Source of the DNA: Rhodococcus phenolicus
GTDB taxonomy: Bacteria > Actinomycetota > Actinomycetes > Mycobacteriales > Mycobacteriaceae
Assembly (NCBI RefSeq): GCF_001646785.1
Contig: NZ_LRRH01000092.1
Location: 1-60,202 of the forward strand
Direction of reading: 5' to 3'
Length of the DNA stretch: 60,202 nt
Position numbers and translations under genes: made by a program. The notes beneath the pieces are model-generated. The model saw only the letters and a list, made by a program, of their open reading frames with translations, did not search any database and was not told the DNA's origin. Below are positions 1-48,137 of this stretch, piece after piece (the stretch's first letter is position 1; each line of letters opens with the position of its first letter).

Positions 1-564
1 GCTGCCGACCTCGGCGGCGGTGCGGGGGCCGTCGGCTTCGCGCAGGAACCCGGCGATCCGGTCCAGGGTCGCGGGGGAGACGCCCTTCGGGGTCGACGCC
101 TTCGTGTTCGACGTGCGCAGCGCGGCCATCGCCCGATCGATGTCGTGTTGCGCGACCGCTGTCTCCGCCGAACCCAGCGCGGTGCGGTAGGCGAGGTAGT
201 GGTCGAGTTTGTCGCGCAGTGCCGCGAACGTGAACGGTTTGAGCAGGTACAGCACGATGCCGCGGGACACCGCGGTGCGGACCACCTCGAGGTCGCGGGC
301 CGAGGTGACCGCGATGATGTCCGGGCTGGGCCGCAACGCGCTCAGTGCCGACGCGACGTCGAGGCCGCTCATGTCGGGCAGTCCGATGTCCAGCAGCACC
401 AAGTCGATCGGTGCGCCGCTGCGTGCCGCCGCGTTCGCCGCCCTCAGTGCGGCAGCACCGGTGTGGACGGCGTCGTGTACCTCGAAATCCGCCATCCGCC
501 CGAGGTATTCGCGGTGCGCCCCGGCGATGAGGGGTTCGTCCTCGACGATGAGAACTCGGATCAC
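1..564 (-). CDS. CitB/DcuR-type response regulator (3' end outside window)
   Basis: Cytoplasmic response regulator paired with the sensor kinase just upstream, probably sensing C4-dicarboxylates or citrate and controlling transport. The receiver begins VIRVLIVEDEP (acidic pocket) and has a phospho-acceptor Asp in DLVLLDIGLPDMSG near residue 55. A conserved Lys lies in LLKPFTF and the start of a C-terminal DNA-binding region follows. The GTG start overlaps the kinase TGA (GTGA), so the two are translationally coupled. The reading frame runs off the left edge, so about 188 codons are visible of an expected 220-240. Substrate is inferred from the neighbouring dctA-like gene. Confidence 0.85.
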   Translation of the reverse strand, partial: MIRVLIVEDEPLIAGAHREYLGRMADFEVHDAVHTGAAALRAANAAARSGAPIDLVLLDIGLPDMSGLDVASALSALRPSPDIIAVTSARDLEVVRTAVSRGIVLYLLKPFTFAALRDKLDHYLAYRTALGSAETAVAQHDIDRAMAALRTSNTKASTPKGVSPATLDRIAGFLREADGPRTAAEVGS

Positions 565-43955: not shown

Positions 43956-45715
43956 CCACGCCACGCCGAAGCGATCGCCCCGGAGTCGGTCGGCTCGGAG
44001 AAGGACGGCATGGCCGGCGTCGACGCCGCAGGGGCGACCTGCGCCGGGCCATGACGCTGCTCGAACTCGAACCCCGCCGCGTCGCCGTCGCCGTCGCGGC
44101 CGGGGTCGCGACCCTCGGTGCCGCGCTGTTCCTGTCGGGGCTGTCCGCGTGGCTCATCATCCGCGCATGGCAGATGCCCCCGGTCCTCGACCTCACCGTC
44201 GCGGTCGTGGCCGTCCGCGCCCTCGGTATCTCGCGGGGCCTGTTCCGCTACTGCGAACGCCTGGCAACCCACGACGTCGCCCTGCGCGGCACCACCGCCG
44301 CCCGCGCCGGGCTCTACCGGCGACTCGCCGCGGGCGACCCGGCCGCGTCCGCGGGCCTGCGCCGCGGCGAACTGCTCACCCGGACCGGCGCCGACGTCGA
44401 TGCCCTCGGCGACGTGGTGGTCCGTGCGCTCGTCCCCATCGCCGTTGCGATCGTGCTGTCCGTCGCCGCAGTGGTGACGCTCGCGCTGATCTCCCCGCCC
44501 GCCGCCGCGATCCTCGCGATCGCGCTGCTGGTCGCCGGGGTGCTCGCCCCGTGGCTGTCCGCGCGTGCCGCTACCCGCGCGGAGGCCGACGGCGCCGAAG
44601 CACGCGCCCGGTTCGCGCAGGACGCGGTCACCGTGCTCGACCACGCGGCCGAACTGAGAGTCGCGGGCCGGCTCGACGCGACCACCGCGCGGGCCTACGC
44701 GGAGAACGATGCGCTGGTCGCGGCGACCGACCGTGCCGCGGCCCCCGCTGCGTTCGCGGAGGCGGCCACACCCCTGGCGATCGGCGCGAGCGTGCTCGGA
44801 TCACTGCTCGTGGGCATCACCGCGTTCGCGTCGGATCCCGCGATGAGCCCGATGTCGCTCGGCATCCTCGTGTTGCTTCCGCTGGCCGCGTTCGAAGCGG
44901 CCGGGACGCTGCCCGCCGCGGCACTGACTCTGACCCGTGCCCGGATCGCGGCAGGCCGGGTCACCGACCTGCTCGACCGCGCCGCCCGGCCCGTCCCCCA
45001 CGGGACACACCCGGTCGGCCGGGGCCACCTGAAGGCCACGGGCCTGCGCAGCGGATGGCCGAACGGCCGCGCGTCGGCACCGCTCGACGTGGACCTGCCT
45101 CCCGGCGCGCGCGTGGCGATCGTGGGTGCCAGCGGCAGCGGCAAGACCAGCACGATCATGACGCTCGCCGGCCTGCTTCCCCCGGTCGCGGGGACCGTCG
45201 CTCTCGACGGTGTCGCGCTCGCCGACCTGGACCCGGCCGAGCTGCGTCACCATGTCGGGTTCTTCGCCGAGGACGCCCACGTCTTCGAGACGTCGGTGCT
45301 CGAGAACCTGCGCGTGGCGCGCGGCGACATCGACGAGACCGCCGCCGCCACCGCACTCGCGTCGGTGGGACTGGCGGACTGGGTGTCGGGCCTGCCGGAC
45401 GGACTGCACACGATCCTCGAAGGCGGTGCGCGTGCGCTGTCGGGTGGTCAGCGCCGACGGCTGCTGCTGGCGCGGGCGCTGCTGTCCCCGGCGCGGGTGC
45501 TGCTGCTCGACGAACCGACCGAGCATCTCGATGCCGACGACGGGGGCCACCTGCAGCGTCTGCTGCTGGACCGCGACGCCGGTCTGGTCGCGTCCGACCG
45601 GACGGTCGTCGTCGTCACCCACCAGCTGCCCGCCGGCACCGCCGCGGACCGGGTCGTCGAGGTCCTCGAGGCCTCGGAGGACGTCCCCGGAAATAATCCG
45701 TTGCCCGCCCGCTGA
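43952..45715 (+). CDS. cydC: Heterodimeric ABC exporter subunit CydC
   Basis: Partner half-transporter of 587 aa. An unusually basic N-terminal stretch (RHGRRRRRRGDLRRAM) precedes LLELEPRRVAVAVAAGVATLG and six TM helices. Its ATPase has Walker A GASGSGKTS, signature LSGGQRRR and Walker B VLLLDEPTEHLD. The ATG overlaps the cydD stop (ATGA). An internal ATG at 44052 (MTLLELEP) is an alternative start that would drop the basic extension. Last gene of cydABDC; no terminator hairpin directly follows. Confidence 0.92.
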   Translation: MTTPRRSDRPGVGRLGEGRHGRRRRRRGDLRRAMTLLELEPRRVAVAVAAGVATLGAALFLSGLSAWLIIRAWQMPPVLDLTVAVVAVRALGISRGLFRYCERLATHDVALRGTTAARAGLYRRLAAGDPAASAGLRRGELLTRTGADVDALGDVVVRALVPIAVAIVLSVAAVVTLALISPPAAAILAIALLVAGVLAPWLSARAATRAEADGAEARARFAQDAVTVLDHAAELRVAGRLDATTARAYAENDALVAATDRAAAPAAFAEAATPLAIGASVLGSLLVGITAFASDPAMSPMSLGILVLLPLAAFEAAGTLPAAALTLTRARIAAGRVTDLLDRAARPVPHGTHPVGRGHLKATGLRSGWPNGRASAPLDVDLPPGARVAIVGASGSGKTSTIMTLAGLLPPVAGTVALDGVALADLDPAELRHHVGFFAEDAHVFETSVLENLRVARGDIDETAAATALASVGLADWVSGLPDGLHTILEGGARALSGGQRRRLLLARALLSPARVLLLDEPTEHLDADDGGHLQRLLLDRDAGLVASDRTVVVVTHQLPAGTAADRVVEVLEASEDVPGNNPLPAR

Positions 45716-45729
45716 GCCCGGCGTACCTT
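45701..45729 (+). promoter_or_regulatory. Predicted promoter for the small RNA/mini-ORF region
   Basis: TTGCCC at 45701-45706 and TACCTT at 45724-45729 are separated by exactly 17 bp, giving a start near 45736, just inside and beyond the 3' end of cydC. Confidence 0.5.
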
Positions 45730-45735
45730 CGTCCG

Positions 45736-45960
45736 TACACGAGGAAGGAGGTGGTCTGGACAATGAGTGAATGTCGGACACGTGAGGTGGCTGCCGGCTA
45801 GCCGCTGTCGCCGACGACGGTATTCACCGACCGCGCGCGCGGCTGGCGAATCCCAGGTAGTCACCCGGCCCCCGAGCCCCCGGTCCGTCCGGCCGGGACC
45901 CGTGAGGGAGTGGATGCGTCCGCCCTCGCCGGTACGGCTCGGGGGCCGCTTGCCGTCCAC
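45736..45960 (+). ncRNA. Putative structured RNA
   Basis: A perfect 13-bp helix can form between CGGCCCCCGAGCC (45866-45878) and its complement at 45936-45948. It encloses two further hairpins: GGTCC/GGACC (45882-45900) and GAGGG/CCCTC (45904-45927), a three-way-junction-like fold. It follows a promoter, strong RBS and mini-ORF and lies between convergent genes. No known RNA family is recognised. A plain cydC/nitrobindin terminator region is the alternative. Confidence 0.4.
45763..45801 (+). CDS. 12-codon mini-ORF with very strong ribosome binding site
   Basis: The ATG starts the peptide MSECRTREVAAG and ends at TAG. It is preceded by GAGGAAGGAGGTGGTC, among the strongest Shine-Dalgarno sequences in the window, with about 8 nt spacing. 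It lies downstream of cydC and the next gene is on the opposite strand, so it is not a simple leader. Its function is not recognised. It may be part of a dual-function RNA with the structured region that follows, and the frame stays open for about 100 codons past TAG. Confidence 0.45.
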   Translation: MSECRTREVAAG

Positions 45961-46768: not shown

Positions 46769-46904
46769 GGGCACATCTTAGACCGCGTCCGGAGGGCACG
46801 AAAATCGACGGTCGGGATCGGTGCAACGAGGTCGACGGCCGCAGCGATTACTGTTCGTCCGATCCGGTCGCCTCGGCCGGCCCTCACGCATCTCCGGAGG
46901 TCGC

Positions 46905-48137
46905 GTGCGCCCGTTTCGCACCACAGTTCTCGCTGCAGCGGTGCTCGCTGCCCTGTCCCTGTCCGTACCGGTTGCCGCCGCGGTACCGGGCAGCGGATCG
47001 TCGCTGCCCGGGTCCGGGCCGCTCGTCCACCCCGACAACGCGGCGCTCGACTGCCCGGACCTGCTGATCGTCGCCGTCTCCGGTGCCACCGACTCGACCG
47101 CCGACCGGAATCCGGTCGAGGAGGAGACGCGGCAGGTGTGGTCCAACTGGGTCGGCAACGTCACCGTGCCCGCCGGCGAGGCGAACAGCAGGTATCCCGG
47201 TTCGGTGGGGTGGATGTACGTGCCCTATCCCGCCACCTACGGGCTCGGGTTGTTCGAGGACGTGCCGACCTACCAGGATTCGGTGGCGGCCGGGGTCGCC
47301 TCGACGAACCGCATCCTCGACGAACAGAAGACCCGCTGCGGGGACCGCACGCGGTTCGCGCTCGTCGGCTACAGCGTGGGCGGGGAGGTCGTCGAGCGGG
47401 TCGCCCGGGAACTCGGCCATCGCCCCGCCGACGCCCACGTGAGCCCCGACGACGTCGCCGGGGTCGTGCTGATCGGTGACCCCTACCGGCCGGCCGGGGT
47501 CGATTCGCTCGATACTCCGGGCCCCTCCGGCGGCGGTTTCATGTCGTCCGAACCCGCCGACTACGGTGCCCTCGCGGACCGCGTCCGGCACGCCTGCCGG
47601 CCCTACGACATCGCGTGCGACGCACCCGAGGAGATCGCGGTCCTCGAACTGGCACTCGGTGTTCTCGGGCAGATGCGGTTCACCCTGGCGAATCCCCTCC
47701 AGACGATCACCGACGCCCAGCGGGTGGTGTCCACGATGGCGGCCCGTGCCGCCGCGCACATCGTCTCCGACGACGAGTGGTGGGAGTCCGACGAATCCGT
47801 GCTCGACGTCCTGCGGGCGGTGGCGGACCGAACGCGTCCGGTGCCGGACGCGGACCTCGGCCCCGACCGGCTCCGGGAACTCCTCGACTGGGCGGTGGGC
47901 CCGGGCATGCCGGTCGTTCAGGAGAAACTGCGCGCCGAGGGGGCCGGTTTCGTCGAGGACAACAGCGGCCTGGTCGAGCTCGTCCTGAAGCCGTACATCT
48001 TCCTCGCGTTCATCCAGCACATCGCGTACTGGAACAACAATCCGCACGATCCCTGGTATTGGGAGAGCGAGAAGATCGTGGACTGGATCGGCGTGCTCGC
48101 CCAGGAGGAGCGGGCGCGGAATTCCGCCGGCAACTGA
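46905..48137 (+). CDS. Cutinase family secreted serine esterase-like protein
   Basis: Exported protein of 410 aa. The signal peptide is VRPFRTTVLAAAVLAALSLS followed by VPVAAAVPG. The mature part has an alpha/beta hydrolase core: LDCPDLLIVAVSGATDST, then the nucleophile elbow FALVGYSVGGEVVERVA (GYSxG) and VVLIGDPYRP. The long C-terminal part ends with YWNNNPHDPWYW. Such proteins are esterases or lipases of the cell envelope. The GTG follows CCGGAGG. The catalytic Asp/His could be in GDPYRP and FIQHIAYW, but this is unverified. Confidence 0.88.
   Translation: MRPFRTTVLAAAVLAALSLSVPVAAAVPGSGSSLPGSGPLVHPDNAALDCPDLLIVAVSGATDSTADRNPVEEETRQVWSNWVGNVTVPAGEANSRYPGSVGWMYVPYPATYGLGLFEDVPTYQDSVAAGVASTNRILDEQKTRCGDRTRFALVGYSVGGEVVERVARELGHRPADAHVSPDDVAGVVLIGDPYRPAGVDSLDTPGPSGGGFMSSEPADYGALADRVRHACRPYDIACDAPEEIAVLELALGVLGQMRFTLANPLQTITDAQRVVSTMAARAAAHIVSDDEWWESDESVLDVLRAVADRTRPVPDADLGPDRLRELLDWAVGPGMPVVQEKLRAEGAGFVEDNSGLVELVLKPYIFLAFIQHIAYWNNNPHDPWYWESEKIVDWIGVLAQEERARNSAGN

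What the first reader, a model, noticed from the sequence alone, without database searches (positions are those of the whole stretch)
45700..45960. Unrecognised promoter, 12-codon ORF and multi-branched RNA between cydC and nitrobindin
A promoter with 17-bp spacing (TTGCCC/TACCTT) is followed by one of the strongest ribosome binding sites in the window (GAAGGAGGTGG), a 12-codon ORF (MSECRTREVAAG), and a segment where a perfect 13-bp helix (45866-45878 with 45936-45948) encloses two shorter hairpins. No gene on this strand lies downstream, since the neighbour is convergent. So it is neither an ordinary leader nor a simple terminator. A dual-function small RNA, or a stop-codon/frameshift-regulated small protein, is possible. 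The frame stays open about 100 codons past the TAG.
Basis: partly seen in the sequence, partly recalled or inferred. Interest (0 to 1): 0.78.

Follow-up and report, generated by a model that had tools for sequence, protein, structure and literature searches.

The report
Pseudoknotted mini-mRNA that binds ribosomes
The stretch holds a known but unexplained actinobacterial small RNA whose start looks made to grip the ribosome, which carries a tiny conserved reading frame folded into a knot, and which may sense or hold back ribosomes that are starting translation.

Summary
New here is its anatomy. (1) The 5' end pairs over 18 contiguous bases (G-U allowed) with the 16S rRNA 3' tail; 14-20 in 163 loci, 16-20 in 38 distant ones. 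(2) The 12-codon frame is kept as a frame, not as a peptide: ATG, GTG or TTG at the fixed place in 159 of 163 loci, 12 sense codons before the stop in 160. Of 38 loci outside the class, 21 have a canonical and 38 a canonical or near-cognate start in frame with the stop. (3) Codons 5-6 pair with the apical loop of the 3' hairpin, a covarying pseudoknot absent from the Rfam consensus; codons 8-11 form helix P1. (4) The promoter is conserved; no one same-strand gene follows across lineages. Best reading: a free-standing mini-mRNA that captures initiating ribosomes, whose loading competes with the pseudoknotted fold. Its function is inferred. Read-through and frameshift ideas are not supported.

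The parts
45701..45706 (+). -35 box TTGCCC, inside the 3' end of cydC
   Evidence: TTG at spacer 16-18 in 137 of 161 loci, 0 in the control stretch
45724..45729 (+). -10 box TACCTT (TANNNT type)
   Evidence: TANNNT in 161 of 161 loci, 6-7 bases before ACAC in 153; 2 in the control stretch
45737..45954 (+). the RNA: Rfam RF02471 Ms_IGR-5, model 1-184 in full
   Evidence: 127.8 bits, E 1.4e-28
45742..45759 (+). 18 contiguous bases complementary (with G-U) to the 16S rRNA 3' tail; contains the Shine-Dalgarno site
   Evidence: tail GGCTGGATCACCTCCTTTC found in the same genome
45763..45801 (+). 12-codon frame, ATG to TAG (MSECRTREVAAG)
   Evidence: 163 loci; 38 distant loci
45775..45780 (+). pseudoknot 5' strand (codons 5-6, CGGACA)
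   Evidence: GGAU/AUCC double change
45886..45891 (+). pseudoknot 3' strand (CGUCCG) in the apical loop of hairpin P4; in the window the A-C position 45780/45886 does not pair
45786..45795 (+). P1 5' strand (last base of codon 8 to codon 11)
   Evidence: 96.3% of cells paired, 6 of 10 pairs with double changes; also predicted by RNAalifold
45856..45865 (+). P1 3' strand (GGUAGUCACC)
45797..45802 (+). P2 5' strand, includes the stop codon
   Evidence: P2 counted as two short helices, 91.4% and 68.0% of cells paired (weak); not in the RNAalifold structure
45842..45847 (+). P2 3' strand
45848..45855 (+). internal loop GAAUCCCA between P2 and P1, partly conserved
   Evidence: A114 and C118 of the first sequence at 90% or more
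45866..45878 (+). P3 5' arm of the 13-bp helix (probable terminator stem without U-run)
   Evidence: 13 of 13 pairs with double changes
45936..45948 (+). P3 3' arm
45879..45897 (+). P4 hairpin carrying the pseudoknot loop

Best explanation
It is the local copy of an actinobacterial regulatory RNA family (RF02471) that is built as a mini-mRNA. Its own promoter makes a transcript of about 220 nt. The 5' end pairs with the 3' tail of 16S rRNA and so captures 30S subunits; initiation occurs at an often weak start codon a few bases downstream, and the frame ends at a fixed stop after about 12 codons. Codons 5-6 and 8-11 are at the same time strands of a pseudoknot and of helix P1 in the 3' domain, so a ribosome on the frame and the folded 3' domain exclude each other. 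Shown here by sequence comparison: promoter, 16S complementarity, start, stop, frame, P1, P3, pseudoknot. Reported for relatives by others: expression, and ribosomal reads in two mycobacteria. Inferred: that ribosomes really initiate there in this organism, that handling initiating ribosomes is the RNA's job, and that it thereby senses or titrates free 30S subunits rather than making a useful peptide.
For: 16S complementarity of 18 bases in the window, 14-20 in 163 loci, 16-20 in 38 distant loci; next best in the window 11-12. ATG, GTG or TTG at the fixed place in 159 of 163 (TTG 71, ATG 60, GTG 28, no CTG), 12 sense codons in 160 and 13 in 3, with a one-codon insertion in L119 and L124 and an 11-codon version in L010/L014. 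38 loci outside the class, frame set by the stop and open: canonical start in 21, canonical or near-cognate in 38; frame +1 gives 0 and 1, frame +2 gives 2 and 8. Pseudoknot: C-G 90, U-A 16, U-G 6, no mismatch among 112 at the core pair that varies; with one locus per family the flanking pairs form in 31 of 45 against 17.0 shuffled and in 21 of 45 against 12.7, and two families have core CGAC/GUCG. P1 and P3 covary. No one same-strand gene follows across lineages. Ribosomal reads on Ms_IGR-5 homologs in M. abscessus and M. smegmatis (PMC4974804, passages); expression in S. lividans and S. avermitilis (PMC8079986, PMC8780764, passages).
Against: No experiment on ribosome binding or on a mutant was found. 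The paper with the ribosomal reads says itself that most characterised ncRNAs of E. coli show such footprints and that coding is hard to judge, so they are weak support. The near-cognate class was added after a first test, anchored on GAGGTG, had given a canonical start in frame in only 19 of 38 distant loci, 7 and 2 in the other frames. Outer pseudoknot pairs fail in 37 and 62 of 112 sequences, three of the four core pairs never vary, one family has a core mismatch (AGAC/GUCG, L207), and L125, L205 and L208 lack the loop. With G-U allowed the distant-set complementarity does not exceed shuffles (6.03 against 5.87; without G-U 5.37 against 4.91). GGAC can equally pair with the GUCC at the end of the Shine-Dalgarno site (99.6% of cells, no covariation). 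In 11 loci of the window's genus a BCCT transporter gene follows on the same strand. The family was not found in 28 of 200 genomes of the order.
Confidence: 0.5

Rival explanations
1. Translation-gated base-pairing sRNA: the 3' domain or the internal loop pairs with target mRNAs, and ribosomes on the mini-frame switch this activity or the RNA's stability; the ribosome is the signal, not the target.
For: Same anatomy as the best explanation; partly conserved single-stranded GAAUnCC loop; no one same-strand downstream gene across lineages.
Against: No target was searched for; the 16S complementarity is longer than a gate would seem to need.
Confidence: 0.25
2. It is simply the mRNA of a very small protein whose 3' untranslated part is the terminator.
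For: Start, frame and stop are conserved; ribosomal reads in relatives (PMC4974804).
Against: Codons 2-4 are free; variation at codon 6 goes with the RNA pairing even when it changes the amino acid (Thr to Met or Ile); L205 and L208 keep a frame but in another register.
Confidence: 0.1
3. Leader/attenuator that controls the next gene on the same strand.
For: Short frame, alternative pairings and a terminator-like hairpin are the classic parts. In 11 loci of the window's genus a BCCT transporter gene lies downstream on the same strand (cluster 12), so a leader role is open there.
Against: In the window the next gene is convergent. In 44 loci a THAP4/nitrobindin-like ORF lies downstream on the other strand, within 200 bases in 28 of them; a same-strand citrate synthase ORF occurs in 16 other loci, roughly 0.8-1 kb away where its start can be judged, with a convergent PNPOx gene between in L069. 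ORF calls are automatic and rough.
Confidence: 0.07
4. The ribosome-binding site only stabilises an otherwise ordinary sRNA against RNases; the frame is a by-product.
For: A bound ribosome could protect the 5' end (recalled for Bacillus leaders).
Against: Does not explain a stop at a fixed place kept by three codons, in-frame insertions, or a frame in the distant loci.
Confidence: 0.08

Closest known systems
Rfam RF02471 Ms_IGR-5 (actinobacterial sRNA; IGR-5 of Li et al. 2013, known here only through a passage and the reference list of PMC10454040)
   Same: Member by score and full model coverage.
   Different: The Rfam consensus shown pairs the Shine-Dalgarno site with codons 10-11 (no double changes among 112) and has neither P1 nor the pseudoknot; no frame is marked in it.
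SprF1 of Staphylococcus aureus (RNA antitoxin that binds ribosomes through a 5' purine-rich stretch and attenuates initiation; passages of PMC8158120)
   Same: Works alike if the best reading holds: small RNA with a purine-rich 5' ribosome-binding stretch.
   Different: SprF1 is an antitoxin opposite a toxin gene; here no toxin partner is apparent, and there are a conserved frame and a pseudoknot.
rpsO pseudoknot of mycobacteria and E. coli (abstract of PMC8470358)
   Same: A pseudoknot at the translation start region controls translation.
   Different: That is the 5' untranslated region of a ribosomal protein mRNA under S15 control; here the RNA is free-standing.
Extended Shine-Dalgarno sites with non-canonical starts in S. 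aureus (abstract of PMC13009471)
   Same: Long 16S pairing combined with non-canonical start codons.
   Different: Those are start sites of mRNAs and leader frames; here of a free-standing small RNA.
Leader-peptide attenuators (general knowledge)
   Same: Short frame overlapping alternative RNA structures.
   Different: No one same-strand gene follows across lineages.

Membership tests
Rfam RF02471 (Ms_IGR-5) | score at or above the curated cut-off of 45 bits | tested here: met
   127.8 bits
Rfam RF02471 (Ms_IGR-5) | full-length match to the model | tested here: met
   1-184 of 184; about 32 letters inserted in the apical part of the 3' hairpin
SprF1-like ribosome-binding RNA | purine-rich 5' stretch that can bind the ribosome | tested here: met
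   18 bases complementary to the 16S tail, (sequence only)
SprF1-like ribosome-binding RNA | physical binding to ribosomes, interference with initiator tRNA | not testable with these tools
   only ribosomal reads in two relatives, PMC4974804 passages
SprF1-like ribosome-binding RNA | antisense to a type I toxin gene | not tested
   no toxin search was made; neighbours are cydC and a THAP4/nitrobindin-like gene
rpsO-type pseudoknot control | pseudoknot next to Shine-Dalgarno site and start codon | tested here: met
   5' strand at +13 to +18 from the start codon
rpsO-type pseudoknot control | lies on the mRNA of the protein it controls | tested here: not met
   stop after 12 codons, convergent neighbour in the window
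leader-peptide attenuator | regulated gene downstream on the same strand | tested here: not met
   not met in the window; open in 11 same-genus loci with a same-strand BCCT gene
tmRNA | tmRNA model match | tested here: not met
   only RF02471 reached its cut-off in the window

The most novel reading that the evidence does not exclude
A trans-acting RNA used through much of the actinobacteria to read or set the supply of initiating ribosomes: its 5' end takes up the 16S tail, the weak start codon (UUG in 71 of 163; CUG, AUU, AUC, AUA or ACG in 17 of 38 distant loci) makes passage depend on initiation stringency, and a GGAC element toggles between the Shine-Dalgarno end and the 3' loop, so that fold and ribosome state are coupled.
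Probability: 0.3. Interest if true: 0.85.

Novelty: new variant of a known kind. Interest (0 to 1): 0.62.

Why it matters
The RNA is widely kept (found in 172 of 200 genomes of the order, 249 of 394 of the class, 57 of 296 drawn from the phylum), and no paper opened here gives it a function. The anatomy turns it into a concrete question: does a free RNA that grips the 16S tail regulate translation initiation? The question can be answered with a deletion, a toeprint and a gradient.

Tried and rejected
Stop-codon read-through or frameshift: rejected. Conserved peptide as the product, suggested to me first by the consensus RTREVA(A/V)R: weakened when codon 6 was seen to follow the RNA pairing and when L205/L208 kept a frame in another register. 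Macrolide-arrest motif (R-x-R, recalled): absent from the W-T-C variants, dropped. Leader of a downstream gene: not in the window, open in 11 same-genus loci. Rfam's first helix (Shine-Dalgarno site with codons 10-11): 96.3% pairable, no double change. Shine-Dalgarno site with the P1 3' strand: 98.2% pairable, no double change. GUCC of the Shine-Dalgarno end with GGAC: 99.6% pairable, no covariation, but predicted by RNAalifold; kept as a possible alternative state. The base before GGAC as a further pseudoknot pair: 61 of 122 against 55.6, p 0.07, but 21 of 45 against 12.7, p 0.0002 with one locus per family; left open. Phages: no match; plasmids: one Nocardia farcinica record of 2.66 Mb.

Rows dropped and choices made. 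By my sorting 13 of the 51 stretches are chance matches and were left out, which gives 163 loci (125 + 38). One search used 122 of 125 loci (L059 and L062 gave no loop, L125 no core); its loop picks for L065 and L097 look wrong. One search picked loops for the 38 scan loci by script: AUCC 27, GUCC 11; by eye the picks for L133, L135, L161, L165, L167 and L172 are wrong, and the count becomes AUCC 30, GUCC 8. Alignment A1 holds 112 of 163 loci, chosen by hand: loci whose terminator end was misplaced and near-duplicates were left out; of its 22 GGAU rows 19 come from the scan, which selected on the 5' side only. One search used 161 of 163; the size of its control set was not printed. One search used one locus per family, 45 families as numbered; L097, L205, L208 and L209 (four further families) were left out and L090 was picked by me; 13 rows were read by eye and checked by the script against the sequence. 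In one search the stop was sought at the expected place (after GC or GG), start-type codons 2-9 bases after the 16S-pairing stretch, and an open path was required in every frame.
Full report
What is there. The window stretch 45737-45954(+) matches Rfam RF02471, Ms_IGR-5, over the whole model with 127.8 bits against a cut-off of 45; it is the only Rfam family reaching its cut-off in the 60-kb window and the only match in the genome. The -35 box lies inside the end of cydC (TIGR02868, 562 bits); the next gene is convergent.

How widespread. The family was found at E 0.001 in 33 of 41 relatives, 172 of 200 genomes of the order, 249 of 394 of the class and 57 of 296 of a phylum draw, each time in 0 of 14 control genomes, with one match per genome except in G178, G302 and G532 among the genomes listed. 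A pattern search of 40 genomes, 38 of them without a model match, found it in 1 more. 38 of the 57 phylum hits lie outside the class, 7 of them above the Rfam cut-off; all 38 were fetched and most show the same parts.

Promoter. In 161 of 161 loci scored a TANNNT box precedes the RNA, in 153 of them 6-7 bases before ACAC, and TTG stands 16-18 bases further up in 137; the same search in a control stretch gave 2 and 0 (control size not printed, at most 163).

Ribosome-binding end. The first bases of the RNA pair with the 3' tail of 16S rRNA over 18 contiguous positions in the window, counting G-U pairs; the best of 1306 candidate starts of longer ORFs in the window reach 11-12. Over 163 loci the length is 14-20, mostly 17, and over 38 distant loci 16-20. 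The tail sequence is present in the same genome.

The frame. Over 163 loci ATG, GTG or TTG stands at one fixed place in 159 (TTG 71, ATG 60, GTG 28, no CTG); L030 has ATC and L047 ATT there, L010 and L014 start one codon later. Twelve sense codons precede the stop in 160 (11 in fact in L010 and L014), thirteen in L119, L124 and L154; the stop is TAG 153, TAA 6, TGA 4. The 38 loci outside the class were read after this rule had been formed. A first test anchored on GAGGTG gave a canonical start in that frame in 19 of 38, against 7 and 2 in the other frames. A second test, anchored on the stop, with near-cognate codons added after seeing those sequences, gave 21 canonical and 38 canonical or near-cognate (CTG 9, ATT 3, ATC 3, ATA 1, ACG 1), against 0 and 2 canonical and 1 and 8 canonical or near-cognate in the other frames. 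The amino acids are not kept: codons 2-4 vary freely, and L205 and L208 read the GAGGTG stretch in another register. What is conserved is that a ribosome can start and stop there.

The fold. On 112 aligned loci (A1) P1 (end of codon 8 to codon 11 with GGUAGUCACC) is paired in 96.3% of cells with double changes in 6 of 10 pairs, and the 13-bp helix P3 in 95.6% with double changes in 13 of 13. The whole structure has 370 cells with double changes against 115 in shuffles, and slid versions stay below 0.07 in covariation score against 0.334. RNAalifold predicts P1 and P3 on the same alignment. P2 is weak (68.0 and 91.4%).

The pseudoknot. Codons 5-6 carry GGAC, the apical loop of the first hairpin inside P3 carries GUCC. 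A scan of one genome for each of 84,980 species for GGAD variants gave 51 stretches, of which I count 38 as members, all GGAU. By eye 30 of them have AUCC in the loop, 29 titled Nocardioidaceae or genera of it and one titled Thermoleophilia, and 8 have GUCC, which still pairs by U-G (Williamsia, Quadrisphaera, Pseudonocardia, Nanopelagicales, one Nocardioides, one unplaced actinomycete); the script's own count is 27 and 11, with six wrong picks. On A1 that pair is C-G 90, U-A 16, U-G 6, with no mismatch. With one locus per family the 3' flanking pair forms in 31 of 45 against 17.0 in shuffles and the 5' flanking pair in 21 of 45 against 12.7; two families outside the class have CGAC with GUCG, one has a core mismatch, AGAC with GUCG. 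On the distant set the complementarity exceeds shuffles without G-U (5.37 against 4.91, highest of 1000 shuffles 5.32) but not with G-U (6.03 against 5.87). The other three core pairs never vary in A1, so they are evidence only by position. L125, L205 and L208 lack the loop and have short forms with a simple hairpin. The Rfam consensus printed leaves both strands unpaired.

Alternative state. The GUCC at the end of the 16S-pairing stretch can pair with the same GGAC (99.6% of cells; also in RNAalifold) but shows no covariation. If real, GGAC toggles between closing the ribosome-binding site and closing the pseudoknot. This is an idea, not a result.

Context. By automatic ORF clustering and Pfam searches of representatives the RNA follows cydC (cluster 4, 32 loci) or a class IV aminotransferase ORF (cluster 1, 47 loci). 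Downstream, a THAP4/nitrobindin-like ORF lies on the other strand in 44 loci, within 200 bases in 28 (cluster 2). In 11 loci of the window's genus a BCCT transporter ORF follows on the same strand instead (cluster 12). In 16 loci of the class outside the order a citrate synthase ORF lies on the same strand, roughly 0.8-1 kb down where its start can be judged (cluster 7), with a convergent PNPOx gene between in L069. No one same-strand gene follows across lineages, but a leader role in the BCCT group is not excluded. These ORF calls are rough.

Literature. Three papers of the library name Ms_IGR-5: PMC4974804 reports ribosomal reads on it in M. abscessus and M. smegmatis, and says that such reads are common on ncRNAs; PMC8079986 gives RNA-seq support in S. 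lividans, PMC8780764 an sRNA transcription unit in S. avermitilis (passages only). PMC10454040 equates IGR-5 with ncMSMEG15794c (passages). The discovery paper is not held. The listings of searches showed no paper on its frame, pseudoknot or 16S pairing; most listed papers were not opened, and most subscription journals are not in the library.

Mechanism. A ribosome that starts at the frame covers or passes codons 5-6 and 8-11, and the pseudoknot and P1 need those bases; the two states exclude each other by geometry (inference). With 16S pairing this long and a start codon often weak, I think that the RNA's business is with initiating 30S subunits: it holds or counts them. Related devices are known: SprF1 (passages of PMC8158120), the rpsO pseudoknot (abstract of PMC8470358), and extended Shine-Dalgarno sites with non-canonical starts (abstract of PMC13009471). 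The next most likely reading is that the ribosome gates a base-pairing sRNA. A peptide product, a leader, or mere stabilisation explain less; on checking I raised the leader from 0.05 to 0.07 and lowered the gated sRNA from 0.27 to 0.25 after finding the same-strand BCCT genes.

Verdict. Real, and a member of a known family, with an anatomy that I did not find described. Interest is moderate to high because the RNA is widespread and unexplained and the model can be tested directly; confidence in the function is only fair.

Noticed in passing
codon 6 of the frame, window 45778-45780, and 163 related loci: The third base of codon 6 is never C (0 of 163) although ACC is a common Thr codon in GC-rich genomes (recalled); GGACC would pair better with the end of the ribosome-binding site. 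In the loci outside the class GGACC is common.
   Followed up: partly
L125, L205, L208: Short forms: same 5' end and a frame, but a simple hairpin in place of the pseudoknotted 3' domain.
   Followed up: partly
window 45848-45855 and alignment A1: Partly conserved unpaired GAAUnCC between P2 and P1; possible target-binding or tertiary element.
   Followed up: no
L003, L005-L007, L009-L012, L016, L017, L019: In these 11 same-genus loci a BCCT transporter ORF follows on the same strand instead of the convergent THAP4/nitrobindin-like gene (cluster 12; Pfam of the L007 copy 579 bits).
   Followed up: partly
G146, G171, G218 (genus g25 of the same family, 4.4-4.8 Mb, estimated 100% complete): Genomes of an otherwise mostly positive genus have no copy by model or pattern; probable loss.
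   Followed up: partly
window 46821-48137(+): ORF with a weak match to carboxylesterase Culp6 (59.9 bits, cut-off 570).
   Followed up: no
NZ_LN868939.1 (Nocardia farcinica plasmid 2, 2.66 Mb): The only plasmid hit; the record is large enough to be a mislabelled chromosome part (inference).
   Followed up: no
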